Positions 1,348 to 32,343 of a DNA stretch of 64,000 nucleotides are shown here, piece after piece. Position numbers and translations under genes: made by a program. Each line of letters begins with the position of its first letter. Position 1 is the first letter of the stretch. This stretch comes from Solirubrobacter pauli (GTDB taxonomy: Bacteria; Actinomycetota; Thermoleophilia; Solirubrobacterales; Solirubrobacteraceae), in the NCBI RefSeq assembly GCF_003633755.1, contig NZ_RBIL01000001.1:2961426-3025425 (forward strand). Reading direction: 5' to 3'. Below the pieces are notes generated by a model. The model made no database searches. It had not been told where the DNA came from and worked only from the letters and a program-made list of their open reading frames with translations.

Positions 1348-1352
1348 GCGCC

Positions 1353-7598: not shown

Positions 7599-7770
7599 AA
7601 CATCGGGAGGTCCGCTTGGCCCCGAGGCTGGCGGACAGGGGACTGGGCTGCGCGGATGCTGCCTCAGCGGGCGCAATCCGCCACGCCACCTGCGCCCTAA
7701 GGGAAAGCGGCTCACTTGTTCGCGCCGCAGGTGGCGCGTGCGTTCGCGCCCACCGGGGCTCGGGCACCGC

Positions 7771-8351: not shown

Positions 8352-8354
8352 CCA

Positions 8355-13246: not shown

Positions 13247-13920
13247 CGTTTGAACGGCCGCTACCAGAGCTGCTGTCGACTTCTTCTGAGTCGCCCGCGG
13301 GCGAAACGCGGTCGTGCTTTTACGCGAAGACGCTGCATCATCTCTACGAGGTCGCCGACGCGGCTTTCGCGAGCGGCGGAACGTCAAAGATTGTTCCCTT
13401 GAAGCTCGCGCCGCGGACCAAGTCCTCCGCGACGGCTGATCCCGAGGTCATTGCGTCGATGTCGGATGCGCCGGCTCTCCGCGCGCTTGAGCAGCTCCGA
13501 GGATGGCTACACCTGTCGTACGAGCAGCTAGGAGCCGTCGTTGGGATCAGTCCTTCGGTGATCTACCACTGGCGCCGGCGACATCGCGAGAATGCACCGG
13601 TCCGTCCTCGGGCGTCGTCGGTGGAGCAGCTCTGGCGCGTCCACTCTGCGCTCCGCGCGGTCGCGGAAGCACTGGACGGCGATGACTCTGGATACGGCGT
13701 GCAGATGTGGGCTAGATCGGCTCGTGATGGAGCGAGCCCGCTCGATCTTCTCCTGCACGGACGCATCGAAGAAGTCGAGAAGCGCGCGGGAACGCTGCTC
13801 TTCGAACGCGACACGCCGCTCCAGCCGCGTTGGCAGCTCGCGACGCCAGAATTCGATGAGGACGACAGTTCGCTTTCGCCGGGCCCGGTCGCTGAGTTTG
13901 AGGACTCCGACTTCGGGTGA
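13243..13920 (+). CDS. HTH protein with MbcA/ParS-like C-terminus, second gene of the unit
   Basis: 225 residues. The middle contains a helix-turn-helix: LRGWLHLSYEQLGAVVGISP followed by SVIYHWRRRH. Near residue 165 the segment GASPLDLLLHGRIEEVEKRAG resembles the toxin-binding end of Xre-MbcA-ParS antitoxins (a PLDLL motif before a V...L helix). No RES-type toxin gene is adjacent, so the partner would be one of the overlapping genes on either side. ATG overlaps the stop of the TIGR04255-like gene, and its own stop overlaps the GTG of the next gene. Confidence 0.6.
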   Translation: MTFERPLPELLSTSSESPAGETRSCFYAKTLHHLYEVADAAFASGGTSKIVPLKLAPRTKSSATADPEVIASMSDAPALRALEQLRGWLHLSYEQLGAVVGISPSVIYHWRRRHRENAPVRPRASSVEQLWRVHSALRAVAEALDGDDSGYGVQMWARSARDGASPLDLLLHGRIEEVEKRAGTLLFERDTPLQPRWQLATPEFDEDDSSLSPGPVAEFEDSDFG

Positions 13921-14825: not shown

Positions 14826-15035
14826 GCTGCTCACGCACGCACGCAGGCGCTCGCGAGTGCCGTGCGATCCTCGCGTGGACAGACGTGCGTTCTGGCGGCT
14901 GGTGGACCTCGTCGTCTCGAACGTCCGGCGCGTCAGGTCAGTCGTCAATCGCGAGATGACTTGTGTGCGCTCCCCGCGGGCGCAGGCAAACCGACACCGC
15001 GCGAATCGATGTGCTTCCGCATCTCTCACCGATGC

Positions 15036-15041
15036 GACAAT
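15036..15041 (+). promoter_or_regulatory. -10 box GACAAT, leaderless-type promoter
   Basis: GACAAT matches five of six positions of TACAAT-type -10 elements and ends 6 nt before the GTG at 15048. This fixes that GTG as the likely transcription and translation start. Confidence 0.45.
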
Positions 15042-15047
15042 GCGTCT

Positions 15048-16295: not shown

Positions 16296-16364
16296 GAAGC
16301 GAGGCACGGCGCGGCTGCGATCCGCGGTCCAAACTTCCGCGCCGCCTGGGCGAGCGGCCCGAAA

Positions 16365-17405
16365 CTACCTCAGATCCCGCTCGGCGACGATCCGGATCTC
16401 GAACCCTTCGCTATCTGACGATCGTGGGTCGACCTGTGGCCACCAATGTGACGGGCGAGTCTTGAAGACGCCGTGCGCAAGTGCCATCGGCCAGACGCCC
16501 CACTCGTCCAACAGGAGACCGTCCGTCGTCGGCGTCGTGTGCTGCTGGATGAACATCCCGCCGTTGGCATTGAAGCTTCCTGAGGTTGGGCACCAACGTT
16601 CGCGCCGCTCCGCATCGGGGCTTCGCCACGACGCCTTGTTGACGAGCACGTCATATGCCGCTTGTTCCATGCGATCGGTGACGGGTCTGACGTCGGCCTC
16701 CAGCAAGAACTCGTTTCGTGCGTCGGCGTGAGTTGCGGGATCTCGCATGGTCTCGAACCAGCCGACGAGCTCCGACCTGTCGTAGCCGAAGCGGCTGTGC
16801 AGAAACGCGGCCACCGGATCCGCTAGGCGTTTGGGCGGACATCTAAAAGCCCGCTCGAACAACCGCACGAACTCGCGGAACCGACCCATCGCTGACCGTT
16901 GGCCTAACGCCTCAACCATCAGGGAGAGTCCGTCGGCGCGGTCGCCCAGCTGTTGCAACACAGTCTCCGGCAAGTCGATCGTGTCCTTGGTGCGAATCTC
17001 GCGCTTCAACCTCCCACGCCGCAAACTCGTCTGTGTCGCGAGCCATCTTCGCCCTGCATCACCGGCACTGACAAGCACAGCCGGCGGCCACGGCGACGAA
17101 ATGTGTCGGCGGCGACCTTGCCCGACCGCGACCAAATTCGCCGCGAACTCGATCGCGCGCTCGGCCACGACGCGCTCCTTTTCGGGGAGGAAGACCTCTC
17201 CGCCACTGCCCTTCGGCGGATACTTCAGCGGGACGGCAGCCTGTACCAGGATCTCAGTCTGATGCTCGGACTCTTGTGCGACTGCGAACACGACTTCCGT
17301 ACCGTCGATATTGAGCGCCCAGTCCTTCCAGCGATCCGCGAGGCGCGGGGAGAACGCCACAAGTGCGAGTCGTACGAGCGCGAGATCGTTCGGCGGCACG
17401 GACAT
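16365..17405 (-). CDS. Unknown 346-residue protein with HEPN-like R-x4-H motif
   Basis: Convergent with the preceding gene. The N-terminal half is beta-rich, ending in SSPWPPAVLVSAGD; the C-terminal half is helical. It contains FETMRDPATHADARN, with R221-x4-H226, followed by a helix with MEQAAYDVLVNKASW. This arrangement (RDxxxH, then a bundle helix with AAYDVL) is what HEPN-type proteins show. The end of the protein has several tryptophans. No partner gene is obvious; the 415-residue neighbour carries a similar motif in an unrelated sequence. Candidate RNase or abortive-infection protein; function unproved. Confidence 0.5.
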   Translation of the reverse strand: MSVPPNDLALVRLALVAFSPRLADRWKDWALNIDGTEVVFAVAQESEHQTEILVQAAVPLKYPPKGSGGEVFLPEKERVVAERAIEFAANLVAVGQGRRRHISSPWPPAVLVSAGDAGRRWLATQTSLRRGRLKREIRTKDTIDLPETVLQQLGDRADGLSLMVEALGQRSAMGRFREFVRLFERAFRCPPKRLADPVAAFLHSRFGYDRSELVGWFETMRDPATHADARNEFLLEADVRPVTDRMEQAAYDVLVNKASWRSPDAERRERWCPTSGSFNANGGMFIQQHTTPTTDGLLLDEWGVWPMALAHGVFKTRPSHWWPQVDPRSSDSEGFEIRIVAERDLR

Positions 17406-17728: not shown

Positions 17729-18844
<1,116 letters not shown>

Positions 18845-18860
18845 CGCGATGCGGTCCGTC

Positions 18861-19727
18861 TCAGCCGACTGAAGCGTCCACCGCCTCTTGATCGGGTTGC
18901 CAGTCGGCCAGTGCCTGGAGGCGCTGTTCGGACTGGCTGCCCGGTGCGGCGCTGTAGGCGAGCAGCGTGAGTCCGCTGTCGGCGGCCAGCACCATCGCGT
19001 TGAAGGAGAGCTCGAGCTCTCCGACCACCGGGTGATGGAAACGCTTGAGCCCGGCGGCGTGTCGTCGGACTCGGTGCTCGGCCCACAGGTCGTGGAACTC
19101 GCGGCTGTCGCTGCGGAGGTCCTCGACCAGGCGAGTGAGCTCTGGGTCGTCGGGGTGGTTGGCCACTTCGGTGCGCAGCGCGGCGGCGACTTGCTGCGCG
19201 ATCGTGTCCCACTCGACGAAGAACTCGCGGGCGCGGGGCTCGAGGAAGATGAACCGGCACAGGCTCACCGGCCGGCGAGGGGTGCGGTACACCTCCGAGA
19301 ACAGTGCGCGGGCGAGATGGTTGGCGGCCAGGATCTCGCGGCGGTGGTTGCGGACGTACGCCGGGCACGCGGTCATGGCCTCGAGCACGCTGTGGACGCT
19401 GTCGCGGACCTGCTGGTCTGCGGTCTCGGTGCGATGGGCCGTGGGTGTGTCGACGCGGGCCAGGGCGAGCAGGTACTCGCGCTCGGCGTCGTCGAGCTGA
19501 AGTGCGGCAGCCAGGGCTTCAAGGACGCTGTCGGACACCCCGCTCAGGTGGCCGCGCTCCAGCCGCGTGTAGTAGTCGACGCTCACGCCGCTGAGCATCG
19601 CCACCTCCTCACGGCGCAGGCCTGGGACGCGTCGGTGCTCGCTCGGCGTCGACAGCCCCGCGTCGCGTGGCGTGATCCTGGCACGGCACGCGCTCAGGAA
19701 CTCTCGGATCTCGACCTTCGTGTCCAC
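18861..19727 (-). CDS. MmyB-like XRE family transcriptional regulator
   Basis: 288 residues from GTG 19727, chosen because it aligns with the start of the paralog at 26791 (both begin V/MD, then LxxxRxxxTPxxAGL). N-terminal helix-turn-helix: HRRVPGLRREEVAMLSGVS, then DYYTRLERGHLSGVSDSVL. The C-terminal MmyB-like ligand domain contains the typical FLEPRAREFFVEWD, HPDDPEL, FHHPVVGELELSFNAM and a final ADWQPDQ. These regulators usually control adjacent redox genes, probably in response to a lipid-like or small aromatic ligand. Paralog of the gene at 25.9 kb. Confidence 0.85.
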   Translation of the reverse strand: MDTKVEIREFLSACRARITPRDAGLSTPSEHRRVPGLRREEVAMLSGVSVDYYTRLERGHLSGVSDSVLEALAAALQLDDAEREYLLALARVDTPTAHRTETADQQVRDSVHSVLEAMTACPAYVRNHRREILAANHLARALFSEVYRTPRRPVSLCRFIFLEPRAREFFVEWDTIAQQVAAALRTEVANHPDDPELTRLVEDLRSDSREFHDLWAEHRVRRHAAGLKRFHHPVVGELELSFNAMVLAADSGLTLLAYSAAPGSQSEQRLQALADWQPDQEAVDASVG

Positions 19728-19814
19728 AGCCTGCCTACGAGCCTCCAACGGAGCTGGTCCAGAACGCTACTCCGAGATGGAGGCCGAGGACAGTGTGGTG
19801 GACAAGCTGACGCT

Positions 19815-19838
19815 GGGGCGCCCGATGGTGGGCGCCCC
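19815..19838 (-). terminator. Hairpin terminator after the glycosidase gene
   Basis: GGGGCGCCC/GGGCGCCCC, 9-bp perfect stem with loop GATGGT, just beyond the stop of the minus-strand gene at 19850. No long T tract, as is common in high-GC genomes. Confidence 0.6.
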
Positions 19839-19849
19839 CGATCAGACGT

Positions 19850-22800
19850 TCACAGGCGCACGCGACTCGCGCGAGCGACCGTCGCGGCCACCGTCCGGTT
19901 CTTGCCGGCGACCGTGATCTGCAGCCGGTACGAACCCGGACGCACTGCGCGCGTCCGCTTCAGGCGGACGTTCACCTTCCCGGCCTGCAGCACGGCGTGG
20001 CCGGTCGCGACGGTTCGGCCGCGGTGGAGCAGCCGCAGCGTCGCGGTGCGGGTGCTCGCGGGCGCCGTCGACCAACTGCCGTCCGCGAACAGCAGCGTGC
20101 AGAGCACGCGAGTCGCACCTGTCGGGCGGCAAGTCGCACGGCCCGCTGGCCCGGGCGGTCCCTGCACGCCGGCCGGCCCTACGGCCCCGGTCTGGCTCTG
20201 CGGACCTGTCGACCCCGGAGCCCCCGCGGTGCCCTGAGGCGCTACGGCCGTGGCTGTGTTCTGGACGCCGGCGCCGGTCGTGCCGACCCCGGTTCCGTTG
20301 TCGTCGCCGCCGTCCTCGCCGAGGATCGCGAGGTCGCTGCCTTCCGAGCACGTGCCGCCGCGCAGCGACGCCGTCGTGGTGAGACGGACGTCGGACACCG
20401 AGGAAGCGACGTACAGGGTCACACGGCCGTTGGGCGTGACCCAGTTGCCGTCGGTGTTGGTGCTCGGGGGATCGGTGCCGTTGGGGTTGGTCGCGTGCGC
20501 CTGGCCTTCGCTGTTGCCGGCGTCGGTGTTGGCGCCCGGGTCCCAGTAGGCGAGCGACTTGCACGCGAGCGGGACCGTCACGGTGCGGCTCTCGCCCGGT
20601 GCCAGCTGCACCTTGGTCCAGCCCGCGAGCTGCTTGGGCGGGGTCGCGACGCTCGTGGGGAGCGTTCCCGCGTAGACCTGAGCGATCTCGGCGCCGCTGC
20701 GCTCGCCGGTGTTGCGCAGCGTGAAGCTGACGCTGACCTGTCCGTCCTGGTTGGAGGCCGTGGCGTCGGTGTAGCCGAAGCTGGTGTACGAGAGCCCGTA
20801 GCCGAACGGGAACTGCAGCGCGGTGCGGTCGCGCTCGTAGCCGCGGTAGCCGACGAACACGCCCTCGGTGAAGGGCACGTCGAAGACCTCCGAGGTCAGC
20901 AGCGGGTTCTGAATGCCGAGCGCCTGCGGCTGGAAGTCGTACCGCGGGTAGGAGATCGGCAGCTTGCCGGACGGGTTGACGTCACCGAACAGGACGTCCG
21001 CGAGGGCCCGGCCTTGCTCGCCGCCGCCGTAGTAGAGCTGCATGATGCCGTCGACCTGGTTGATCCACGGCATCGTCACGGGGCCGCCGCTCTGCAGCAC
21101 GACGACCGTCCGAGGGTTCGCGCGGGAGACCGCGTCGATCAGCTCGTCCTGCTCGGTCGGCAGGTCGAGCTCACCGCGATCACGCGATTCCGCCTCGTAG
21201 AGCCCCGCCACTACGACGGCGACGTCGGAGCGCGAAGCGAGGCTGACCGCCGCTTGGATGTCGGGCGAGAGCGCGCCTGCGGGAGCCACCCAGCCCAGCC
21301 GGACGGAGCCGGGGTCCAAGGAGTCGCGCGGCGTCGTGGTCGCATACTCGACTCGGAACGTGTATGCGCGCCCGCCTACCAGCTGCTGGGGGGCCGACAC
21401 GTACGCGCGCGGCGCGATCTGGTTGGTGAACGACACGATCTGGCGCCCGTCGAAGATCAGTCGGCCGGTGCCGAAGCCCGAGAGCGACAGCTGGTAGGTG
21501 CCGGACTGCGGCGGGGTGATCGTGCCCGAGTAGCGGACGGACTGCGCGGTGGTGGGTGCCAGGACCGCCTCCGGATGGATCGCGAAGCCCGCGATGGCGC
21601 CGCGATCGAATGCCGGCCGAGGATCGACGCGGGTGATGAACGGCGTGCCGGCGAACGTCGTGTTGGTCCAGTACTCGGCACGGACGCCGGTCTGGCCGGC
21701 GGCGCCCGGCGGCGAGAGCACCGATGACGGGATCGCGTCCGGACCGGGCGCGAGATCCGCCGGGTTGGGCGGGTCCGAGCCTCGCTCGAAGCCGACGCTG
21801 ACGCCGCTCCCCGCTCGCTGACGGATGCCCTGCAGCGGCGAGATGGTGTACGTCGGATTCTGGATGGCCGCTGCGCAGCACTGCTGCGCTGCCCACGTCG
21901 CACCCTCGCCGATGACGGCGATCGATTGCGGCTGGCGCGGGCGCTGCAGCGGGAGGGCGGCGTTGCGGTTCTTGAGCAGCGTGATCGCTTCTTGCTCGAT
22001 CTCGCGCGCCATGCCGCCGTGCTCTTGCGTGGCCACGGGCTGATTCGTGGCCGGCAGTGGGTGATCGAAGATCCCGTTGCGGAAATAGATCCGCAGGATG
22101 TTGCGTACGCGCTGGTTGACGAGCGCTTCGCTCACCGTGCCCGCACGCACCGCCGCGAGCAGCGCGGGCCCGTAGGCGGCGATGGTGCCCGTCTCGAGAT
22201 CCATGCCATCTTCGATCGAGTCGACGGTGTGGTACGACGCGCCGAAGTCGGTGAGGATGAAGCCGTCGAAGCCGAGCTGACGGCGGAGCACCTGCTCCTG
22301 CAGGTACCCGTGCTCGCAGGCGTGCTCGCCGTTGATGCGGTTGTAGGCACACATGACGGAGGCCAGTTGCTCGCGCACCGAGGGCGCCCACGGGCGCGTG
22401 TAGATCTCTTGCAGCGTGCGCTCGTCGACGTCGGAGCTCTGCGTGTTCACGCCGCGCCGACGGTTGGTCTCCTGCGTGTAGGCGTTGTAGTGCTTGAGGT
22501 TGACGGCCATGTCGCCGTCGGCTTGGGCCGCGCGCACGAAGCGTGCTGCCATCACCCCGGACAGGAGCGGGTCCTCGCCGAACGTCTCACCGATGCGCGA
22601 CCAGAACGGGTTGCGCGCGATGTCGACGTTCGGGCCCAGCACCATGTTGTGCCGCGTCGCGCGCGCCTCGTCGGCGACCGCCGCGGCGAGTCGCTCGGCC
22701 AACCGGCTGTTCCAGGTGGCGGCGAGCGCGATGTCCATCGGGAACGCCGTGGTGGGCGACTGCACGAAGCGCACGCCGGGACCGATGTCGACGGTGCGCA

Positions 22801-23056
22801 ACTCCGGGATTCCGAGCCGAGGAATCGCGGCGTTGAAGTAGGCGCCAGTGCCTGGGGGCGGGTCGCCCGTCATCAACGCGACCTTCTCTTCCAGCGTCAT
22901 CTGCGGGAGCAGGGCATCGACCCGCTCCTCGGGAGACAGCGAGGGGTCCAACCACGGTTGTCCCTGCGCGCCGGCGACGCCCACCGGCACGGTCAATAGC
23001 ACCGCGACTGCGACCCCGGACAGGCCGACGCGGGCACGAGCACGCCGGGTGATCAC
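19850..23056 (-). CDS. Secreted family 3 glycoside hydrolase (beta-glucosidase type) with PA14 insert
   Basis: 1068 residues from GTG 23056, which has AAGGAG 6 nt upstream; a start at 23089 lacks one. Signal peptide to about residue 33 (cleavage after VAGA). GH3 N-terminal barrel with NVDIARNPFWSRIGETFGED, NLKHYNAYTQE and the nucleophile Asp in GFILTDFGASY. The alpha/beta domain carries ESRDRGELDLPTEQDELI, which supplies the acid/base Glu, and is split by a PA14-like insert (VRAEYWTNTTFAGTP to TFRVEYAT). A fibronectin-III-like domain follows, then an unusual collagen-like Gly-x-y linker (GAPGSTGPQ, GAVGPAGVQGPPGPAG) and an extra beta domain at the C-terminus. Exported and probably acts on plant or polysaccharide oligosaccharides. 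Confidence 0.9.
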   Translation of the reverse strand: MITRRARARVGLSGVAVAVLLTVPVGVAGAQGQPWLDPSLSPEERVDALLPQMTLEEKVALMTGDPPPGTGAYFNAAIPRLGIPELRTVDIGPGVRFVQSPTTAFPMDIALAATWNSRLAERLAAAVADEARATRHNMVLGPNVDIARNPFWSRIGETFGEDPLLSGVMAARFVRAAQADGDMAVNLKHYNAYTQETNRRRGVNTQSSDVDERTLQEIYTRPWAPSVREQLASVMCAYNRINGEHACEHGYLQEQVLRRQLGFDGFILTDFGASYHTVDSIEDGMDLETGTIAAYGPALLAAVRAGTVSEALVNQRVRNILRIYFRNGIFDHPLPATNQPVATQEHGGMAREIEQEAITLLKNRNAALPLQRPRQPQSIAVIGEGATWAAQQCCAAAIQNPTYTISPLQGIRQRAGSGVSVGFERGSDPPNPADLAPGPDAIPSSVLSPPGAAGQTGVRAEYWTNTTFAGTPFITRVDPRPAFDRGAIAGFAIHPEAVLAPTTAQSVRYSGTITPPQSGTYQLSLSGFGTGRLIFDGRQIVSFTNQIAPRAYVSAPQQLVGGRAYTFRVEYATTTPRDSLDPGSVRLGWVAPAGALSPDIQAAVSLASRSDVAVVVAGLYEAESRDRGELDLPTEQDELIDAVSRANPRTVVVLQSGGPVTMPWINQVDGIMQLYYGGGEQGRALADVLFGDVNPSGKLPISYPRYDFQPQALGIQNPLLTSEVFDVPFTEGVFVGYRGYERDRTALQFPFGYGLSYTSFGYTDATASNQDGQVSVSFTLRNTGERSGAEIAQVYAGTLPTSVATPPKQLAGWTKVQLAPGESRTVTVPLACKSLAYWDPGANTDAGNSEGQAHATNPNGTDPPSTNTDGNWVTPNGRVTLYVASSVSDVRLTTTASLRGGTCSEGSDLAILGEDGGDDNGTGVGTTGAGVQNTATAVAPQGTAGAPGSTGPQSQTGAVGPAGVQGPPGPAGRATCRPTGATRVLCTLLFADGSWSTAPASTRTATLRLLHRGRTVATGHAVLQAGKVNVRLKRTRAVRPGSYRLQITVAGKNRTVAATVARASRVRL

Positions 23057-23226
23057 GGCAGCTCCTTGGACATGCGCTCTCCTCTCCACCGGCGTCTGCC
23101 GGCCTACGCCAGACGCGCACCCCTACGTCCGCGCCTACGACGTCCTCACCCAATCACGTTGTCGGGCGGTTGTAAGGGAGCCTGTTGGTCCCGGTACCGG
23201 CAGTACCTCCCAGGCGCGGAAGCGGC

Positions 23227-23589
23227 TCAGTAGCCGTCTTGGCAGGCGTGCAGGCTGACGAGCTTCCAGCCGTCGGCACGCTGCGCGTAGACCTCGGTGC
23301 AGACGAGCTTGAACACCATGCCGCCGTTGATCGTGAACGTGCCGCGGGCCACGACGATCGCGGCGTCGCCGTAGACTCGCACAGACGTCTCGTGCGTCTC
23401 GATGCGGTCGTAGACGAAGCGCTGCGATCGCAGCTCGCCCATCCACTCTGGCTTGGAGGTGATGTGGCCGTTGAGGTGCACGAAGACCAGCTCGTCGTCG
23501 AAGAGGTCTTCCAGCCGGTCGAGCGGACCGTCGGTGGCCCAGCGCCACTTTGCGTCGGACAGGGCGCGGATCTCGTGCTCAGCCGGCAT
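23227..23589 (-). CDS. NTF2/SnoaL-like protein (DUF4440 type)
   Basis: 120 residues. Pattern of the NTF2-like cone fold: an opening helix (IRALSDAKWRWATDGPLDRL), LFDDELVFVHLNGHITSK, MGELRS, and strands SVRVYGDAAIVVARGTF and WKLVSLHAC. Members are small-molecule-binding enzymes or stress proteins of varied activity. It overlaps the end of the cupin gene by 11 nt and is the last gene of the operon running from the regulator at 26791. Confidence 0.78.
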   Translation of the reverse strand: MPAEHEIRALSDAKWRWATDGPLDRLEDLFDDELVFVHLNGHITSKPEWMGELRSQRFVYDRIETHETSVRVYGDAAIVVARGTFTINGGMVFKLVCTEVYAQRADGWKLVSLHACQDGY

Positions 23590-23980
23590 TCGGGTATTCG
23601 CCGTCGGTGACGTGCCGCCCCCAGTTGACCGTGCTGCCGCTTGCGTCGGTCTGCTGCATGGCGATGTGGACCATGAAGCGGTTCGGCGCGGCGCCGTGCC
23701 AGTGGTTCTCGCCGGGTTCGAAGAACACCCGGTCGCCGGGGCGGAGCTCCTCGAGCGGACCGCCTTCGCGCTGGCAGAGCCCTACGCCCTCGGTGACGAA
23801 GATGGTCTGACCGTGCGGGTGCGTGTGCCAGGCCGTACGCGCCCCCGGAGTGAAGTGCACCGCGGCGGCGGCGAAGACCGAGCTGCCGGCGGGCGCGGCG
23901 ACGGCGTCGATGTAGACGTCCCCGGTGAACCAGTCCGACGGGCCCTTCTGGGTATCCATGCTGCTCCGCGTGATTTGCAT
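23579..23980 (-). CDS. Cupin-domain protein
   Basis: 133 residues. Cupin motif 1 is complete: PGARTAWHTHPHGQTIFVTEG supplies three His and, by position, the fourth acidic or polar ligand; motif 2 is PGDRVFFEPGENHWHGA. The pattern matches the QdoI/YhhW-like 'cupin with AxxHxHxxxQ' proteins near redox operons. It could bind a metal and act on or sense a small aldehyde or quinone. It lies in an operon with two aldo-keto reductases (9 nt from the upstream gene). Confidence 0.82.
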   Translation of the reverse strand: MQITRSSMDTQKGPSDWFTGDVYIDAVAAPAGSSVFAAAAVHFTPGARTAWHTHPHGQTIFVTEGVGLCQREGGPLEELRPGDRVFFEPGENHWHGAAPNRFMVHIAMQQTDASGSTVNWGRHVTDGEYPNAG

Positions 23981-23988
23981 GAGGTCTC

Positions 23989-25005
23989 CTAGCGGCGCCG
24001 CAGGGCCGGGGCGAGGACCTGCTCGCCGTAGCTGGTGTCGGCCGGGTTGATGGTCACGCCCGGCTTGACGATCTCGTCGATGCGGTCGAGCACCTCGGCG
24101 CTCAGCTGCACCTCCGCGGCCGGGAGCTGGCTCTCGAGCTGCTCCATAGTGCGCGGGCCGACGATCGCCGACGTCACGCCCGGGTGGTTGATGACGAACG
24201 CGATCGCGAGCTCGATCATGGTCAGGCCGGCGTCGTCGGCGACCTGCTGGAGCGCTTGGACGGCTTCGAGCTTGGCCTGGTTCTCGGGCAGGGCCATGTC
24301 GAAGCGCTTGGCGAGGCGCTGGCGGGCCGGTGAGGTGGGCGAGCTGTCGGCGCTCCAGCTCCCGGACAGCCAGCCGCCGCCGAGCGGGCTGTAGGTGAGG
24401 ATGCCCATGCCGTGGCGTTGGGCGGTGGGGAGGACGTCGAGCTCGATGCTGCGCGTGAGCAGCGAGTAGGGCGGTTGCTCGGTGCGGTAGCGCTCGAGGT
24501 TGCGGTCGCGGGCGGCGATCTGCGCCTCGACAATCTGGCTGCCGCTGAATGAGGAGGACCCGATGTACCGGACCTTGCCCTGGCGGACGAGGTCGGTGAG
24601 CGCGCCGAGGGTCTCCTCGTAGTCGACGGCCGGGTCGGGGCGATGGACCTGGTAGAGGTCGATGTGATCGGTCTGCAGGCGTCGGAGGGAGTCCTCGACC
24701 GCGGTCATGATCCAGCGTCGCGAGGGCCCGCGCCGGTTGACGTCGTCGCCCATCGGCATGAAGAACTTGGTCGCGAGCACGACGTCGTCGCGGCGGCCCT
24801 TGAGTGCCTTGCCGAGAATCTCCTCGGACTCGCCGGCCGAGTAGACGTCGGCGGTGTCGACGAAGTTGACGCCGGCGTCGAGCGCGGCGTGGATGATGCG
24901 GACCGAGTCGTCGTGGTCGCTGTTGCCCCAGGCGCCGAACATCATCGTGCCGAGGCAGAGGCTGGGGACCTGGACGCCGGTGCGTCCGAGCGGGCGGTAC
25001 TGCAT
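23989..25005 (-). CDS. Aldo-keto reductase
   Basis: 338 residues. Starts MQYRPLGRTGVQVPSLCLG. The tetrad residues are Asp and Tyr in FVDTADVYSAGESE, Lys in VLATKFFMPMGD and His in LYQVHRPDP. Cofactor site: TSAIVGPRTMEQLESQL. This is the YajO/YghZ-like group. It lies 1 nt downstream of a second reductase gene of a different subgroup (25007-25903), so the operon makes two distinct carbonyl reductases. Confidence 0.9.
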   Translation of the reverse strand: MQYRPLGRTGVQVPSLCLGTMMFGAWGNSDHDDSVRIIHAALDAGVNFVDTADVYSAGESEEILGKALKGRRDDVVLATKFFMPMGDDVNRRGPSRRWIMTAVEDSLRRLQTDHIDLYQVHRPDPAVDYEETLGALTDLVRQGKVRYIGSSSFSGSQIVEAQIAARDRNLERYRTEQPPYSLLTRSIELDVLPTAQRHGMGILTYSPLGGGWLSGSWSADSSPTSPARQRLAKRFDMALPENQAKLEAVQALQQVADDAGLTMIELAIAFVINHPGVTSAIVGPRTMEQLESQLPAAEVQLSAEVLDRIDEIVKPGVTINPADTSYGEQVLAPALRRR

Positions 25006-25006
25006 C

Positions 25007-25903
25007 TCAGGCCTCCGGGATGTCGCGGCCGAACGTCTCCAGCGTGATGTCCTCGGGCTCAGGGCCGCCGCGCTTGCCGGTTTCCAGGCCGTCGATGGCG
25101 GCCAGCTGCTCGGGGGTGAGCTCGAAGTCGAAGACGTCGAGGTTCTCGGCGATGCGTGCCGGCTTGGTGGACTTGGGGATGACCGAGCGACCGTGCTGGA
25201 GCCCCCAGCGCAGCATCACCTGAGCGGGTGTCTTGCCGTGCGCGGCGGCGATCTTGGTGATCACCGGGTCCTGGAGCGTGCTCGTGTGGCCGCTGTCGCG
25301 GTAGAAGGTGATGCCGCCGATCGGCGACCACGCCTGGGCGAGGATGCCGTGACGCTCGCCGAAGGCCTGGACCTCGGCCTGCTGGAAGTACGGGTGCTGC
25401 TCGATCTGGTTTACGGCCGGAACGACCGACGTTTGGTCGAGCAGTTGCTCCAGGTGATTGACCATGAAGTTGCTGACGCCGATCGCGCGGACCTTGCCGT
25501 CGGCCAGCAGCGTCTCCAGGGCCCGGTAGGCCTCGAGCGTCTTGTCGAAGGCCGAGGGCAGCGCCTGGTGCAGGATTAGGAGGTCGATCTGCTCCACGCC
25601 GAGCTTGGCGGCGCTCTTCTCGAACCCGTGCAGGGTCTCGTCGTAGCCGTAGTCGGAGATCCAGATCTTGGTCTCCAGGAACACCTCAGAGCGATCGAGG
25701 CCGGACGCGCGGACGGCATCGCCGACCTCGCGCTCGTTGCCGTAGGCCGCGGCGGTGTCGATATGGCGATAGCCGGCGCCCAGTGCCGCCTGCACGGCCG
25801 CTGTGGTCTCCTCCGGCGGGCTTTGGAAGACCCCAAGGCCGAGGGCGGGCATGGTGACGCCGTTGTTGAGCTCCAGTGACGGAGCGGCGGTTGCAGGGGC
25901 CAT
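25007..25903 (-). CDS. Aldo-keto reductase, 2,5-diketo-D-gluconate reductase type
   Basis: 298 residues. AKR5-like signatures: NNGVTMPALGLGVFQ, GYRHIDTAAAYGNEREVG, VFLETKIWISDYG, LLILHQALP, IGVSNFMVNHLEQLL and the NADPH motif SVIPKSTKPARIAENL. Tetrad Asp, Tyr, Lys and His all present. Reduces keto sugars or small aldehydes with NADPH. It directly follows the MmyB-like regulator gene in the same operon (33 nt gap). Confidence 0.9.
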   Translation of the reverse strand: MAPATAAPSLELNNGVTMPALGLGVFQSPPEETTAAVQAALGAGYRHIDTAAAYGNEREVGDAVRASGLDRSEVFLETKIWISDYGYDETLHGFEKSAAKLGVEQIDLLILHQALPSAFDKTLEAYRALETLLADGKVRAIGVSNFMVNHLEQLLDQTSVVPAVNQIEQHPYFQQAEVQAFGERHGILAQAWSPIGGITFYRDSGHTSTLQDPVITKIAAAHGKTPAQVMLRWGLQHGRSVIPKSTKPARIAENLDVFDFELTPEQLAAIDGLETGKRGGPEPEDITLETFGRDIPEA

Positions 25904-25936
25904 CGTCGAGGCTCCTTTCGTCTCGAGTTGATGCGC

Positions 25937-26791
25937 TTAGCTGCGGGAAGTGGCGGGTGTGGCCGTCCAGCTGGCGAGGAGGTTCAGCGCCTCCTCGGAA
26001 CGACTGCCCTGCTCGGCGCTGTAGACGCTGATGCTCAGGCCGGTGTCGGCGGGCAGCTCCATCACGTCGTAGCTGAGCTCGAGCTCGCCGACCACCGGGT
26101 GGCGCAGCTTCTTGGTGCCGGTCTGGTGGAAGCGCACGTTGTGGGCCGCCCACCAGGTGCGGAAGTCATCGCTGCGCATGGACAGCTCACCGACCAAGTC
26201 GGTGAGGCCGGGGTCGTACGGGTTGCGGCCCGCCTGTGAACGCAAGTGCGCAACCAGGTCACGAGCGACCCGCTCCCAATCGACATAGAACTCCGTCGCT
26301 GCCGGGTCCAGGAACGTGAAACGGGCGCTGTTGGTCGGCTGCTCACGGCTCTCGAACAACGGCGCATACAGCGCGCGGCCCAGCGCGTTCGCGGACAGGT
26401 AGTCAACCCGGCTGTTGCGCACGATCGCCGGGTTGGTCATCCCGTCCACGATGCGCTGCACCGCGGGCCGTACAGCCTTTGCAGCCGGCTTGCGACGCCG
26501 CGGCGCGGCCGGGTTGACCGCGCGGGCGAGGTCGAACAGGTGCGCCCGTTCGGCGTCGTCGAGCTGCAACGCTCCGGCCACGGCTTCGAGCACGTTGTCT
26601 GAGACGCCGCTGAGGTGTCCGCGCTCCAGCCGCTTGTAGTAGTCGATGCTTACGCCGGCGAGCGTCGCGACTTCTTCGCGACGCAGACCGGGAACCCGGC
26701 GCTTGCCGGTGACGTGCAGGCCCGCCTGCTCGGGCGTGACGTTCGCACGCCGCGAGGCCAGGAACGTTGCGATGTCGTCTGTCCTGTCCAC
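25937..26791 (-). CDS. MmyB-like XRE family transcriptional regulator
   Basis: 284 residues, GTG start. Helix-turn-helix: RRVPGLRREEVATLAGVSID, then YYKRLERGHLSGVSDNVLEA. MmyB-like ligand domain: FLDPAATEFYVDWERV, NPYDPGLTDLVGEL, RHPVVGELELSYDVMELP. The -10 TAGCCT ends 7 nt before the GTG, so the mRNA is probably leaderless. First gene of the operon with the two reductases, cupin and NTF2-like protein, and divergent from the alcohol dehydrogenase operon. Paralog of the gene at 18.9 kb. Confidence 0.88.
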   Translation of the reverse strand: MDRTDDIATFLASRRANVTPEQAGLHVTGKRRVPGLRREEVATLAGVSIDYYKRLERGHLSGVSDNVLEAVAGALQLDDAERAHLFDLARAVNPAAPRRRKPAAKAVRPAVQRIVDGMTNPAIVRNSRVDYLSANALGRALYAPLFESREQPTNSARFTFLDPAATEFYVDWERVARDLVAHLRSQAGRNPYDPGLTDLVGELSMRSDDFRTWWAAHNVRFHQTGTKKLRHPVVGELELSYDVMELPADTGLSISVYSAEQGSRSEEALNLLASWTATPATSRS

Positions 26792-26798
26792 GTTGTCC

Positions 26799-26838
26799 AG
26801 GCTAGGCGCGTTGAGGCCGAGAAAGGGTGCCCTGTCAG
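26799..26838 (-). promoter_or_regulatory. Promoter of the regulator operon with shared 18-bp element
   Basis: On the minus strand CTGACAGGGCACCCTTTC (26838-26821), 16 nt, TAGCCT (26804-26799), 7 nt, GTG. Sequence and gap are identical to the promoter at 17673-17712. The divergent alcohol dehydrogenase promoter lies on the other side, with ACCCTTTT and a weak TTCAGT 7 nt before its ATG. A single regulator protein could control both directions. Confidence 0.6.
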
Positions 26839-26893
26839 TACCCCGTTCGCAGAACCCTTTTGCCGTCTGTGCACGCGCGCTTCAGTGGCCGTC

Positions 26894-27931
26894 ATGCGTG
26901 CAGCCCTCTTCAACGAGCCCCGCTCGATCACCGTCGGCGACCGGCCGGACCCGGTGATCGTCGAGCCGACCGACGCGATCGTCCGCGTCGTGCTGGCCTG
27001 CGTGTGCGGCTCAGACCTCTGGTACTTCCGCGGCGACTCCGAGTTCGCGCCCGGTCCGATCGGCCACGAGTTCGTCGGTGTCGTCGAAGACGCCGGCGCC
27101 GCCGTGACCCACGTCAAGCGCGGCGACTTCGTCATCGCCCCGTTCGCCTTCAGCGACGGCACCTGCCCCAACTGCCAGCACGGCGTTACCACCGCGTGCA
27201 TGACGGGGGGCTTCTATCCGTCTAACGGCGATGGCGGCCAAGGCGAAGCGGTCCGCGTGCCGCTCGCTGACAGCTCGCTCGTGACCGTCCCTGGCAGCGG
27301 CCACTCCGAGGAGATGCTCCGCTCGCTGCTCACGCTGTCTGACGTCATGGCCACCGGCCACCACGCCGCCGTCTGCGCGAACGTGCAGGCGGGCGGCACG
27401 GTCGCGGTCGTGGGCGACGGCGCGGTCGGCCTCTCCGCCGTGCTCGCCGCCAAGCGCCTCGGCGCCGACCGCATCATTGCCCTGAGCCGCCACGCCAACC
27501 GCCAGGCGCTCGCCACGGAGTTCGGCGCCACCGACATCGTCGCCGGCCGCGGCGAGGAGGCGATCGAGGCCGTGCGCGAGATGACCAACGGCGTCGGCGT
27601 CGACGCCACCATGGAGTGCGTCGGCACCGACCAGTCGATGAAGACCGCGATCGGCATCGCCCGCGCCGGCTCGATGGTCGGCTACGTCGGCGTCCCACAC
27701 GGCGTCGAGCTGCCGATTAGCCAGATGTTCTTCCAGACCGTCGGCGTCCGCGGCGGCGGCGCCCCCGCCCGCGTCTACATCCCGCAGCTGCTGCCCGACG
27801 TGCTCGAAGGCCGCATCAACCCCGGCCTGGTCCTCAACTACGAGACCGACCTCGAGGGCATTGCCGACGCCTACGCCGCCATGGACGAGCGCCGCGCGAT
27901 CAAGTCCCTCGTGCGCGTGGGGACGATCTGA
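26894..27931 (+). CDS. Zinc-dependent alcohol dehydrogenase family protein
   Basis: 345 residues. MDR fold: catalytic zinc ligands in CVCGSDLWYF and GHEFVGVVEDAG, structural-zinc loop reduced to CPNCQHGVTTAC (three cysteines instead of four), Rossmann motif VAVVGDGAVGLSAVLAAKRLG and C-terminal PQLLPDVLEGRINPGLV. Oxidises or reduces alcohols/aldehydes with NAD(P). Transcribed away from the MmyB-like regulator; stop overlaps the ATG of the DUF2255 gene (TGATG). The start at 26894 is preferred because only upstream nonsense precedes it. Confidence 0.88.
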   Translation: MRAALFNEPRSITVGDRPDPVIVEPTDAIVRVVLACVCGSDLWYFRGDSEFAPGPIGHEFVGVVEDAGAAVTHVKRGDFVIAPFAFSDGTCPNCQHGVTTACMTGGFYPSNGDGGQGEAVRVPLADSSLVTVPGSGHSEEMLRSLLTLSDVMATGHHAAVCANVQAGGTVAVVGDGAVGLSAVLAAKRLGADRIIALSRHANRQALATEFGATDIVAGRGEEAIEAVREMTNGVGVDATMECVGTDQSMKTAIGIARAGSMVGYVGVPHGVELPISQMFFQTVGVRGGGAPARVYIPQLLPDVLEGRINPGLVLNYETDLEGIADAYAAMDERRAIKSLVRVGTI

Positions 27932-28299
27932 TGGGCGCCTGGACCGAAGACGAACTGCGCCGCATCGACGGCGTCCAAGAGCTCGCCATCGCACCAGTGC
28001 GCCGCAACGGCGAGCTGCGTCGCGCGACCCCGATCTGGGTCGTGCGCGTCGATGACGACCTCTACGTCCGCGCCGCCTACGGCGCGAACAAGGGGTGGCA
28101 CGGCGTCGCCCGCTCCAGCCACCAGGCGCAGATCCGAGCCGGCGGCGTGCAGAAGGACGTCGCGATCGAGGACGCCGACGCTGCGGTCAACGACGCCGTC
28201 GACGCCGCTTACCGCACCAAGTACGGCCACTACGCCAGCATCGTGGACAGCATCAACGACGCCGAGCACCGGACGACGACGCTCCGGCTCGTCCCGTAG
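27931..28299 (+). CDS. DUF2255 family protein
   Basis: 122 residues. Pattern WTEDELRRIDGVQELAIAP, then IWVVRVDDDLYVRAAYG, GWHGVARSSHQAQIRAGGVQ and AYRTKYGHY matches the DUF2255 family, related in fold to flavin-binding split-barrel nitroreductase-like (F420/FMN) proteins. Usually found beside alcohol dehydrogenases and MFS genes as here; biochemical role is not established. Coupled to the dehydrogenase gene by one-base overlap. Confidence 0.85.
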   Translation: MGAWTEDELRRIDGVQELAIAPVRRNGELRRATPIWVVRVDDDLYVRAAYGANKGWHGVARSSHQAQIRAGGVQKDVAIEDADAAVNDAVDAAYRTKYGHYASIVDSINDAEHRTTTLRLVP

Positions 28300-28308
28300 G
28301 CAACGATC

Positions 28309-29736
28309 GTGCCCACCACGGACAAGCTGCGCACCGGCCCGGTGCTGGCGATCGTGCTCGTCAGCTACGCGATGATCGTGCTCGACATCTCGATCGTCAT
28401 CACCGCGCTGCCGCAGATCCATCGCACGCTGGACTTCTCGGCCACCGCGCTCTCCTGGGTCCAGAACGCCTACCTCCTCGCCTTCGGCGGGCTGCTGCTG
28501 CTCGGCGCTCGCGCCGGTGACCTGTTTGGCCGCCGCCGCATGTTCACGATCGGCCTGGCGCTGTTCACGCTGGCCTCGGTTGCCGTCGGCAGCGCTCAGA
28601 CCGAACTGTGGCTGATCGCCGCCCGTGCCGCCCAAGGCGTCGGCGCCGCGATCCTCGCTCCCTCCACGCTCGCGCTCTTGCAGACCAGCTTCGCCGAAGG
28701 ACCCGAACGCACGCGCGCGGTGTCCCTCTACGCGGCGGTCGCCGGTGTCGGCGCCACCGTCGGCCTTGTCGTCGGAGGCATCTTCGCCGGCTGGCTGTCC
28801 TGGCGCGTCGGCTTCTTCATCAACGCTCCGATCGGCCTGGCGATGATCCTCGCCGCGCTGCGCTTCCTCCCCGAGACGACTCCACGGCGGGGCGCCACTG
28901 ACGCCACCGGTGTCATCGCCTCCACGCTCGGCATGACTGCCCTGGTCTTCGGCATCGTCCGCTCCGCCGACGCCGGCTGGACCGATCCGCTGACGCTGGT
29001 CACGATCGCCGTCGGCGTGCTCGGGCTCGTCCTGTTCGTCGCCAACGAGCGCCGCGCCGCCCAACCGGTCATGCCGCTGCGACTGTTCTCCAGTCGTGAG
29101 CGCTCCGGCGCCTACGCCGCGCGCCTGCTCTTCCTCGCCGCCATGGCCCCGTTCTGGTTCTTCACGACCCAGTGGCTGCAAAGCGTCGCCGGCTACAGCC
29201 CCGTGCAGGCCGGCCTGGCCTTTCTTCCCGTCACCCTGCCCAACTTCGCCGCAGCGCTCGTCATCCCGCACCTGACCCGCCGCTACGGCAACCCCACCGT
29301 GCTGATCGCCGGCCTCACCCTCTCGGTGATCGGCATGGCCTGGCTCGGCCGCCTCGGCCCGGACACGTCCTACTTCACCGGCATCGCCCTCCCGATGATC
29401 CTCATCGGCATCGGCCAGGGAGGCTCGCTTGGCCCGCTGACGGCGGGCGGGCTCACCGGAGTTAGGTCCGAGGACGCCGGCGCTGCCGGCGGGGTCACCA
29501 ACGTCGCGCACCAGATCGGCGGCTCCCTCGGCCTCGCCGTCTTGGTCGCGGTCTTCGCCGCCGCCGACTCCGACACGCTCAGCGGCGCCGCGCTGCTGGC
29601 CCACCGCATCTCCGCCTCCCTCACGGTGGCCGCCGTGCTCTTGGCGGTCGCGCTCATCGTCGCTCTGGTCGTCCATCCGCGGCGTCACGCCGCGGCCGCA
29701 CCGCAGCTGGCAACGTCCGCGCTGACCGAGCGCTGA
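28309..29736 (+). CDS. MFS drug exporter, DHA2-type
   Basis: 475 residues, GTG start, with about 14 hydrophobic segments. Signatures: motif near the first helix LDISIVITALPQIHRTL, motif A GARAGDLFGRRRMF between helices 2 and 3, motif C-like region AAVAGVGATVGLVVGG. Exports drugs or toxic metabolites by proton antiport across the cytoplasmic membrane. Third gene of the alcohol dehydrogenase operon; the start lies 9 nt after the DUF2255 stop. Confidence 0.88.
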   Translation: MPTTDKLRTGPVLAIVLVSYAMIVLDISIVITALPQIHRTLDFSATALSWVQNAYLLAFGGLLLLGARAGDLFGRRRMFTIGLALFTLASVAVGSAQTELWLIAARAAQGVGAAILAPSTLALLQTSFAEGPERTRAVSLYAAVAGVGATVGLVVGGIFAGWLSWRVGFFINAPIGLAMILAALRFLPETTPRRGATDATGVIASTLGMTALVFGIVRSADAGWTDPLTLVTIAVGVLGLVLFVANERRAAQPVMPLRLFSSRERSGAYAARLLFLAAMAPFWFFTTQWLQSVAGYSPVQAGLAFLPVTLPNFAAALVIPHLTRRYGNPTVLIAGLTLSVIGMAWLGRLGPDTSYFTGIALPMILIGIGQGGSLGPLTAGGLTGVRSEDAGAAGGVTNVAHQIGGSLGLAVLVAVFAAADSDTLSGAALLAHRISASLTVAAVLLAVALIVALVVHPRRHAAAAPQLATSALTER

Positions 29737-29748
29737 GCAGGGTCGGAC

Positions 29749-31317
29749 ATGGAACACGTCGAGCTCGTTCTGCTGTTCCTGCTGGTGGCGGTGGCGGCGT
29801 TGACCTGGCTGTCATCGGCCCTTGACGTCCCGTACCCGATCCTGCTCGTCCTCGGCGGCAGCGTGCTCGGCTTCGTTCCCGGCGTGCCAGAGGTCGAGCT
29901 CAATCCAGATCTCGTCCTGCTGATCGTCCTGCCGCCGCTGTTGTTCCACGCCGCGTACTTCGCGTCCCTGCGCGAGTTGCGAGCAAATGCGCGCGCGATC
30001 TCCCTGAACGCCTGCGCGTTGGTGCTGCTCACCATGAGTGCCGTCGCGGTCGTCACGCATGCTGTCGTGCCCGGGATGCCCTGGGTCGCGGCGTTTGCCT
30101 TCGGGGCGATCGTCTCCCCGACCGACCCGCTTGCCGCCGTGACCATCGCCCGTCGGCTCGGCGTGCCTCACCGGCTGATCGTCCTCATCGAGGGCGAGTC
30201 GCTGATCAACGACGGCACGGCGCTGGTTGCGTACCGCACCGCGCTGGCCGCTGCCGTCGGCGGGTCCTTCAGCCTGCTCGACGCCGCCGGCGACTTTGTC
30301 CTGAACGTGGTCGGCGGCGTGGTCGTCGGCGTCATCGTCGCGCAGGTGTTGCTGTGGGTGTTCCGCCGGATCGTGGGCGACGACCTGCTCGGCGTCACGG
30401 TCTCCCTCATCGCCGGCTTCGCCGCCTACGTCCCCGCCGAAGAACTCGGCGTCTCTGGCGTCATCGCCGCCGTCACCGTCGGCCTGCTCGTCGGCCACCG
30501 CGCCGCCGAGCACTCCACCGCCAGCTCCCGCCTACGCAGCTTCGCCTTCTGGGACGTCCTCGTCTTCCTGCTCAACGCCCTGCTGTTCGTCCTCGTCGGC
30601 CTCCAGCTGCCCAGCGTGCTCGAAGACCAAGACCGATCCGCCGCCACGTTGATCGGGCTCGGGGCGCTCGCCGGCGCCGTCGTGATCGGCGTCCGCCTGC
30701 TGTGGTCACACACGATCCCGTACCTCATCCGCGCACTCGACCGACGCCCTCGACAGGTCGCCATGCGCGTCGCTTGGCGCGAGCGCATGGTGCTCGCCTG
30801 GGGCGGCCTCCGAGGCGCCGTCTCCCTCGCCGCCGCGCTCGCGCTCCCGCGAGACTTCCCGGAGCGCGACCTCATCATCTGGCTGACGCTCTGCGTGATC
30901 CTCGCCACGCTCGTGCTGCAGGGCGTCACGCTGCCGGCCCTCATCCGCACCCTCGGCATCCGCGAAGACGAGTCCGCCGCGCTCGATGAGCTCCGCGCAC
31001 GCAAGGCCGCCGCCCGTGCCGCGCTGCATCGCATCGACACGCTGCGCAAGGAGGACTGGACGCGGCCCGACAGCTTGGACCGGCTGCACGCGATGTACGA
31101 GTTCCGTTACAACCGCCTCGCCCAACGCGCCGGCGCGCTCGAAGCCGACGAGAACCTCGACGAGCGCTCTGCCACCTACCAGCGCACCGTCCGAGACCTC
31201 CTGGACACCCAACGGCGGGAGCTCGTCCGCCTGCGCGACGACGGCCAGGTCTCCGACGAAATCCTCCACGCCCTCACCCGCGAGATCGACCTTGAGGACC
31301 AACGCCTTGAAATCTGA
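29749..31317 (+). CDS. Na+/H+ antiporter, CPA1 family
   Basis: 522 residues with about 12 membrane segments followed by a soluble helical tail from residue 410. Diagnostic sequence: AIVSPTDPLAAVTIARRLG and LIEGESLINDGTALVAY, containing the TDP and ND ion-binding residues. C-terminal tail contains MYEFRYNRLAQRAGALE and DLLDTQRRELVRLRDDG, as in bacterial NhaP-like exchangers with a cytoplasmic tail. Exchanges Na+ for protons. Follows the MFS gene by 12 nt. Confidence 0.9.
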   Translation: MEHVELVLLFLLVAVAALTWLSSALDVPYPILLVLGGSVLGFVPGVPEVELNPDLVLLIVLPPLLFHAAYFASLRELRANARAISLNACALVLLTMSAVAVVTHAVVPGMPWVAAFAFGAIVSPTDPLAAVTIARRLGVPHRLIVLIEGESLINDGTALVAYRTALAAAVGGSFSLLDAAGDFVLNVVGGVVVGVIVAQVLLWVFRRIVGDDLLGVTVSLIAGFAAYVPAEELGVSGVIAAVTVGLLVGHRAAEHSTASSRLRSFAFWDVLVFLLNALLFVLVGLQLPSVLEDQDRSAATLIGLGALAGAVVIGVRLLWSHTIPYLIRALDRRPRQVAMRVAWRERMVLAWGGLRGAVSLAAALALPRDFPERDLIIWLTLCVILATLVLQGVTLPALIRTLGIREDESAALDELRARKAAARAALHRIDTLRKEDWTRPDSLDRLHAMYEFRYNRLAQRAGALEADENLDERSATYQRTVRDLLDTQRRELVRLRDDGQVSDEILHALTREIDLEDQRLEI

Positions 31318-31327
31318 CCCGGCCGCC

Positions 31328-31990
31328 ATGTCACGACGCGCGCTGCTCCACCGCGCCATCCTCGGCGCGGAAGGGCTCACGCTTGCCGCCGCGCTCAGCG
31401 CATGCTCGACGTCGGAGGAAGCCGTACGCCCGTCAGGCGCCGCGACGTCGACGCCCGAAGCGCGCCGGACCATCCTCCTCGCGTACTTCTCCCGGCCCGG
31501 CGAGAACTACTGGTACGGCGGCCGCCGCAACCTGCGCACCGGCAACACCGAGATCCTCGCCCGCATGATCCGCGAGCGGCTCGACTGCGACGTGCACCGC
31601 ATCCTCGCCGCACGGCCCTACCCACGCGACTACGAGCAAACCGTCGAGCGCAACGTGCGAGAACAAGATGCCGACGAACGTCCCGAGGTCGCCAACCCGC
31701 TGCGAGCGATCGACCGCTACGACACGATCCTGCTCGCCAGCCCGATCTGGAACGTGCGCGCGCCGATGATCATGACCACGTTCACCGAGAGCTACGACTT
31801 CACCGACAAGACCGTGCATCCCATCACCACGCACGCCATGAGCGGCCTCGGCAATACCGAAGAGGACTACGCCCGAACTTGCCGAGGCGCACGGATCGGC
31901 GCCGGACTGGCGATCCAGGGCGAGACGGTGCGCGACGCCTCCGCCGAGGGAGATCTCGAGGCGTGGCTGAGCCGAGTCGGTCTCGGCTGA
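31328..31990 (+). CDS. Flavodoxin-like lipoprotein
   Basis: 220 residues from ATG 31328. The signal RRALLHRAILGAEGLTLAAALSAC is a lipoprotein-type signal (given as RRALLHR, then LTLAAALSAC, lipobox LSAC) with a twin-arginine-like start. The mature part is a flavodoxin_4 domain: ILLAYFSRPGENYWYG, TGNTEILARMI, YDTILLASPIWNVRAPMIM, TFTESYDFTDKTVHPI. It would bind FMN on the outer face of the membrane and act as quinone or disulfide-type reductase partner. Last gene of the operon, 10 nt after the antiporter. Confidence 0.82.
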   Translation: MSRRALLHRAILGAEGLTLAAALSACSTSEEAVRPSGAATSTPEARRTILLAYFSRPGENYWYGGRRNLRTGNTEILARMIRERLDCDVHRILAARPYPRDYEQTVERNVREQDADERPEVANPLRAIDRYDTILLASPIWNVRAPMIMTTFTESYDFTDKTVHPITTHAMSGLGNTEEDYARTCRGARIGAGLAIQGETVRDASAEGDLEAWLSRVGLG

Positions 31991-32185
31991 CGCGCCGATG
32001 TGATTGCGCCAAGACCCTGCTTGGCGGGCTTCAGTGATGTGAAGGGGTGCGAGACTAGCCGGCGACGTCCGTCAGAAGCGGCATCATGTCGAAGCCTCAT
32101 GCCACGCGCTCGCTCACACGCCGCTCCGCGCGCCGACGCGAACACTTGGGACTCTGGGGGCGTTCTGGGGGCACGCGTCGTGCCA

Positions 32186-32221
32186 CGTCAGGCGTCGTCA
32201 GGCTCGTTCAGGAGCGTCAGG
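32186..32221 (+). repeat. Four phased CGTCAGG-type repeats
   Basis: CGTCAGG at 32186, 32196 and 32215, and GTTCAGG at 32206, spaced 10, 10 and 9 nt, about one helical turn. They lie 50-85 nt left of the tRNA fragment, where integrase arm-type sites would be expected. No other function is visible. Confidence 0.35.
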
Positions 32222-32269
32222 TTGGCTCTGGAGCGTCCTGAAGCGGCTGGACGTGGCATTTCTGGTGCG

Positions 32270-32311
32270 CTCGTAATGAAGGGGTCCCCGGTTCGAGTCC
32301 GGGTGTCGGCT
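32270..32311 (+). other. Displaced 3' fragment of a tRNA-Thr(CGU) gene, likely attachment site
   Basis: The stretch reads as the 3' part of a tRNA: anticodon loop CTCGTAA (anticodon CGT at 32272-32274), TGAAG, variable GGGTC, T stem CCCGG / loop TTCGAGT / CCGGG, then acceptor strand TGTCGGC and discriminator T. The bases left of the loop do not pair with TGAAG, and no D arm is present, so the gene is broken inside the anticodon loop. A tRNA-type terminator follows. This is how the displaced end of a tRNA looks after a tyrosine-recombinase element integrates. The rebuilt full tRNA should lie left of the element, outside this window. Confidence 0.75.
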
Positions 32312-32317
32312 CCTCTC

Positions 32318-32343
32318 GAAAGCCTCGCGTTCGCGGGGCTTTC
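32318..32343 (+). terminator. Intrinsic terminator of the broken tRNA gene
   Basis: Stem GAAAGCCTCG paired with CGGGGCTTTC (one T-G pair), loop CGTTCG, followed by TCGTCGTTT. Six nt after the tRNA 3' end. Confidence 0.75.

What the first reader, a model, noticed from the sequence alone, without database searches (positions are those of the whole stretch)
32186..32343. Broken tRNA-Thr(CGU) 3' end with terminator marks an island boundary
The T arm, acceptor strand and terminator are intact but the 5' half is missing and the break lies in the anticodon loop. This is the expected displaced copy after integration at a tRNA. The island should extend left from here, so the redox island (17.7-32 kb) and perhaps the integrase-bearing element at 1-17 kb may belong to one composite element whose integrase is now internal.
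Basis: partly seen in the sequence, partly recalled or inferred. Interest (0 to 1): 0.62.

Follow-up and report, generated by a model that had tools for sequence, protein, structure and literature searches.

The report
tRNA-Thr fragment ending a mobile island
The broken tRNA piece is the right-hand scar of a 51-kb mobile DNA island, with genes for DNA transfer and redox enzymes, that inserted into a threonine tRNA gene in a soil bacterium related to Solirubrobacter; it is a well-placed example of a known way in which bacteria gain genes.

Summary
Confirmed. Window 32270-32321 is an exact 52-nt direct repeat of the 3' part of an intact tRNA-Thr(CGT) gene left of the window (C1:2942406-2942480, same strand). 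The repeat starts at C32, the first base of the anticodon loop, and runs 8 nt past the gene. The 51,258 bp between the copies hold an ICE-like backbone (coupling protein, VirB4-like ATPase, pilin, ParA/ParB, SSB, Prim-Pol, ArdC), an intact tyrosine integrase and the redox genes. A 17-nt repeat flanks both ends like an integrase arm site. Four of six congeners (G001, G003, G005, G006) have one copy only. The tRNA is a recurrent target: 39 of 232 genomes of the order have two or more copies of the 17-nt core. Of 80 integrase relatives, 49 have an intact tRNA within 1 kb, tRNA-Thr in 27. How the redox block joined is open; it is syntenic with DNA elsewhere in two congeners. Known kind.

The parts
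32270..32321 (+). attR core: displaced 3' part of tRNA-Thr(CGT), C32 to 8 nt past the gene end (tRNA part 32270-32313); left partner C1:2942437-2942488 (L040:438-489), outside the window
   Evidence: 52-nt exact direct repeat
32320..32341 (+). transcription terminator hairpin of the displaced copy, probably the original chromosomal one
   Evidence: fold; closer to the single-copy sites of G006 (43 of 51 columns) and G003 (38 of 50) than the attL-side terminator is (37 of 51, 35 of 50); G004, itself occupied, goes the other way (34 of 49 against 37 of 51)
32156..32172 (+). putative integrase arm-type site GGGGGCGTTCTGGGGGC, repeated exactly 75 nt past the tRNA gene end at the other end (L040:557-573)
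10719..11879 (+). tyrosine integrase (386 aa; longer start 10668)
   Evidence: Pfam PF22022, PF14659 and PF00589 (PF00589 below its cut-off); conserved R, H/Y-x-L-R-H and Y residues in the alignment; relatives mostly beside tRNA-Thr
1..9316 (+). right part of the ICE-like backbone: 3D-domain protein, SSB, Prim-Pol, ParB, ArdC, sigma-70 region 4 (left part outside the window: ParA, TrwB-like coupling protein, TrbC pilin, VirB4-like ATPase)
   Evidence: Pfam/NCBIfam; 52-81% aa identity to an ICE in G001/G006
12422..17405 (.). accessory genes between integrase and redox block, mostly unknown, low GC3
17855..31990 (.). redox block: three aldo-keto reductases, two MmyB-like regulators, GH3 glycosidase, SnoaL-like, cupin, zinc ADH, DUF2255, MFS, Na+/H+ exchanger, flavodoxin
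   Evidence: Pfam; 23.6-29.7 kb syntenic in G003 and 23.6-28.3 kb in G005

Best explanation
Window 32270-32321 is attR of a 51.3-kb composite integrative element of ICE type. A tyrosine integrase recombined attP with attB in tRNA-Thr(CGT), with the crossover in the 7-nt anticodon loop (CTCGTAA), which lies between the inverted stem arms CTTCA and TGAAG. The element brought its own tRNA 3' half and terminator, so a complete tRNA remains at the left end, while the original 3' half and terminator were pushed to the right end. Shown: the paired att sites, their orientation, shared end repeats, gene content and single-copy relatives. Inferred: the exact crossover point, that this integrase did it, that the element can still excise, and that the redox genes are cargo gained by an older conjugative backbone.
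For: Exact 52-nt direct repeat, same strand, starting at C32. 17-nt repeat at both inner ends; 0 of 397 random 200 x 200 nt pairs reach 17; TTCTGGGGGC has 3 copies in 99 kb, all at the att flanks. Intact integrase inside; 27 of the 49 relatives with an intact tRNA within 1 kb sit at tRNA-Thr, out of 80 loci. Displaced fragments in this genome and relatives share the break: 6 of 7 inspected start at C32. T4SS and maintenance genes. GC3 0.805 in the backbone against 0.943-0.949 in the flanks. The attR terminator is nearer to two single-copy congeners.
Against: The chromosome right of attR (33-64 kb) has no synteny within 40 kb of the tRNA in G001, G003 or G006 (20 kb in G005), so a clean empty site was not reconstructed. 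G001 and G004 share a right flank that is not in this window. The integrase is 20.4 kb from the nearer att, whereas in 49 of 80 relatives a tRNA lies within 1 kb. No relaxase was recognised. The terminator difference is small, and G004 goes the other way.
Confidence: 0.88

Rival explanations
1. Tandem accretion: an older element (the redox block, 17.8-32.3 kb) with its own att scar sat at tRNA-Thr(CGT), and the ICE (left end to 17.4 kb) later entered at the same site; the inner att site was lost, so the outer pair now bounds both. This is a variant of the best explanation, not its opposite.
For: GC3 steps from 0.805 to 0.903 at 17.4-17.8 kb. Tandem scars exist at this tRNA in relatives: G035 has two displaced copies, and BLAST also gives two in G027. 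A 10-mer of the core, TGAAGGGGTC, lies at 17491, between ICE and redox block. Accretion with decayed elements is described for IMEs (PMC5704250, passages).
Against: A gapped scan for a decayed inner core scores 15.0 at 17.4 kb, below the 99th percentile of 15.6. The 17-nt repeat pairs the outermost ends, as one attP would.
Confidence: 0.35
2. The fragment is the scar of an older, unrelated element; the redox block is native chromosome and the ICE boundary is near 17.4 kb.
For: Redox genes have nearly host-like GC3 (0.903) and are syntenic elsewhere in G003 (79-85% nt) and G005 (80% nt).
Against: In those two congeners the block is on other contigs than this tRNA. The end repeat pairs the left end with 32.16 kb, not with 17.4 kb.
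Confidence: 0.08
3. Chance resemblance, or a duplicated tRNA piece without an island.
For: None found beyond the general abundance of T-arm-like sequence.
Against: 52 of 52 identical, same strand, integrase between.
Confidence: 0.01

Closest known systems
tDNA-targeted genomic islands of the Islander class, anticodon-centred (A) site, 3' fragment (PMC4383910)
   Same: Intact tDNA, displaced 3' fragment downstream in the same orientation, integrase inside, 2-200 kb, crossover at the anticodon loop.
   Different: Integrase 20 kb or more from either end; this host order is not mentioned in the part I read.
T4SS-type ICEs of Actinobacteria (PMC3218068)
   Same: Tyrosine integrase, VirD4-like coupling protein, VirB4/TraC-like ATPase in an actinobacterial chromosome.
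   Different: No relaxase recognised; carries ParA/ParB, SSB and Prim-Pol as well.
AICEs (FtsK type; PMC3218068)
   Same: tRNA target (a group of pSE211-type integrases uses tRNA-Thr), Prim-Pol.
   Different: T4SS ATPases and a pilin rather than a single FtsK-like translocator.

Membership tests
tDNA-integrated genomic island (Islander criteria) | Intact tDNA plus its fragment in the same replicon, same orientation, 3' fragment downstream | tested here: met
tDNA-integrated genomic island (Islander criteria) | Integrase gene between them | tested here: met
   window 10719-11879; Pfam integrase families, PF22022 above its cut-off, PF00589 below
tDNA-integrated genomic island (Islander criteria) | Length 2-200 kb; fragment not inside a full tRNA gene | tested here: met
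   51,258 bp; ARAGORN finds no tRNA in the window
Integrative and conjugative element (T4SS type) | Integrase, VirD4-like coupling protein, VirB4-like ATPase | tested here: met
   Pfam and NCBIfam matches; the VirB4 call rests on matches below curated cut-offs, plus homologues in 26 further genomes of 399
Integrative and conjugative element (T4SS type) | Relaxase | tested here: inconclusive
   no relaxase family among the island ORFs scanned; not every ORF was scanned and unknown proteins remain
Integrative and conjugative element (T4SS type) | Excision and transfer between cells | not testable with these tools
   needs cells or reads
AICE (FtsK-type) | Single FtsK/SpoIIIE translocator, no T4SS | tested here: not met
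   coupling protein matches TrwB best, PF01580 below cut-off; VirB4-like ATPase and pilin-like gene present

The most novel reading that the evidence does not exclude
tRNA-Thr(CGT) is a standing docking site in Solirubrobacterales, where one integrase clade stacks conjugative elements in tandem. Here the ICE has taken a host-genus redox gene block between its integrase and attR, and the inner att site has been erased, so that host genes can now be carried as part of one large conjugative unit of a lineage with no recognisable relaxase.
Probability: 0.25. Interest if true: 0.5.

Novelty: new member of a known kind. Interest (0 to 1): 0.35.

Why it matters
It turns a small oddity into a mapped 51-kb element with exact ends, gives a testable attB/attP pair for a little-studied soil class (the full-text searches listed no paper whose title concerns ICEs or islands of this group), and shows a repeatedly used tRNA-Thr site through which gene blocks enter these genomes.

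Tried and rejected
Two pattern searches used a wrong gap (5 instead of 3); their zero counts mean nothing and are not used. A search for a decayed inner att at the ICE/redox junction gave no score above background. Homology between the stretches right of attL and right of attR was weak (34 of 1000 shuffles and 16 of 1012 windows as good) and is not used. In six other islands the two ends share only 8-9 nt, no more than random pairs. A first reading that some integrase relatives leave 5' halves was an orientation error in my tRNA library (minus-strand tRNAs were stored reverse-complemented) and was withdrawn. A PADLOC scan of unknown genes gave only weak Csa3 matches; PDB searches with two unknown proteins gave none.

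Full report
What is there. The window is C1:2961426-3025425 of a 7.1-Mb, 4-contig genome. At window 32270-32313 lies the 3' half of a tRNA-Thr(CGT), starting at C32, the first base of the anticodon loop, and followed by a terminator hairpin. No complete tRNA is in the window. The genome has one long second copy: the intact tRNA-Thr(CGT) at C1:2942406-2942480, same strand. The two agree without a mismatch over 52 nt, from C32 to 8 nt past the gene, and differ beyond it. The distance between the two cores is 51,258 bp; the left end lies about 19 kb left of the window.

What lies between. A self-trained gene call with Pfam and NCBIfam scans gives, from left to right: ParA, a TrwB/TraD-like coupling protein, a TrbC-like pilin (just below its cut-off), a VirB4/TraC-like ATPase, a 3D-domain protein, SSB, Prim-Pol, ParB, ArdC, a sigma-70 region 4 protein, a tyrosine integrase (10719-11879), unknown accessory genes to 17.4 kb, then the redox block (17.9-32.0 kb). 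GC3 is 0.805 in the first part (23 genes), 0.903 in the redox block (13 genes), and 0.949 and 0.943 in the left and right flanks (11 and 24 genes).

The integrase and its target. In 80 loci fetched from named genomes with an alignment of 13 integrases, 49 have an intact tRNA within 1 kb; 27 of the 49 are tRNA-Thr (14 CGT, 13 GGT), and 39 of the 49 lie on the integrase's C-terminal side. Here the integrase is 20.4 kb from attR and 29.7 kb from attL, so it is unusually internal. A 17-nt sequence is repeated 75 nt past the tRNA gene end at the left end and 114 nt before the core at the right end; none of 397 random pairs reach that length. This is what arm-type integrase sites of one attP would look like; binding is not shown.

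Relatives. Of the six congeners searched, G001, G003, G005 and G006 have one copy of the 17-nt core, and G002 and G004 have two. Left of the tRNA, synteny is clear (84.0% over 1626 bp in G003). Right of attR it is not: no right-flank protein has an orthologue-like match within 40 kb of the tRNA in G001, G003 or G006, while G001 and G004 share a right flank of their own. The terminator right of attR matches G006 in 43 of 51 columns and G003 in 38 of 50, against 37 of 51 and 35 of 50 for the attL one; G004, which is occupied, goes the other way. This fits the expected swap but is modest.

A recurrent site. In 232 genomes of the order, 146 have the 17-nt core and 39 have two or more copies; the reversed control pattern was found in none (the 39 is my tally of its table). 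For 19 genomes I can place at least two copies on one contig (15 from the listed rows; G000, G002, G004 and G022); in all 19 they are on the same strand. For the other 20, copies were on different contigs or not listed, and extra complete genes were not excluded. Of 7 displaced fragments read base by base, 6 start at C32 and one (in G035) starts earlier.

A related ICE. G001 and G006 carry a backbone 52-81% identical in protein from the pilin to window 9.3 kb, followed by about 21 kb of other genes and a tRNA-Asp 3' half that also starts at C32. So the same backbone type sits at another tRNA with another accessory block.

The redox block. Window 24.0-29.7 kb is syntenic in G003:C166 (85.1% over 3002 bp, 78.6% over 2318 bp) and 23.6-28.3 kb in G005:C9 (80.3% over 4749 bp), on other contigs than this tRNA. 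It is therefore probably host-genus DNA. Whether it was picked up by the ICE or came by tandem accretion with loss of the inner att is not decided; the scan for an inner att was negative.

Literature. PMC4383910 (first of three parts of the text, and passages) defines the class and the anticodon-centred site. PMC3218068 (passages) separates AICEs from T4SS ICEs and lists a relaxase among the marks of the latter. PMC5704250 (passages) describes accretion. PMC11476347 (passages) concerns tRNA hot spots in another genus. Six searches listed no title on this site in Solirubrobacterales; I did not read the other listed papers.

Verdict. The observation and the main interpretation are right. It is a new member of a known kind, with good boundaries and an unsettled origin of the cargo.

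Noticed in passing
window 17490, 32039, 32411(-), 32458: The 10-mer GTGAAGGGGT occurs at these four places in 99 kb, at the edges of the redox block and beside attR, and not in about 312 kb of other sequence checked; the 12-mer GTGAAGGGGTCA has 4 copies in the whole genome, 3 of them here. It shares TGAAGGGGT with the tRNA core. Unexplained.
   Followed up: partly
window 32409-32421 and 32457-32469: Perfect 13-nt inverted repeat 35 nt apart, just right of attR; possibly a small mobile-element remnant or a hairpin.
   Followed up: partly
window 32181-32258: Long imperfect hairpin directly left of the fragment, folding far better than shuffles (z -5.15 as DNA).
   Followed up: no
window 32344-33200: Stretch between attR and the first right-flank gene; the ORFs tested there (32000-32377, 32448-32966) match no Pfam family and it looks like decayed genes.
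   Followed up: no
G000:C1:342864-345500: Second VirB4-like gene in the same genome (36% identical), with an SSB and other backbone homologues nearby: probably a second conjugative element.
   Followed up: partly
window 18864-19748 and 25940-26791: Two MmyB-like regulators in the redox block; both match the same regions of G003 and G005 (51-53% and 76-84% aa identity), suggesting a paralogous pair.
   Followed up: no
L164 (G006:C416:40164-40205): tRNA-Asp(GTC) 3' half starting at C32, followed by a terminator and a convergent integrase-like gene, apparently of the next element in a tandem.
   Followed up: partly
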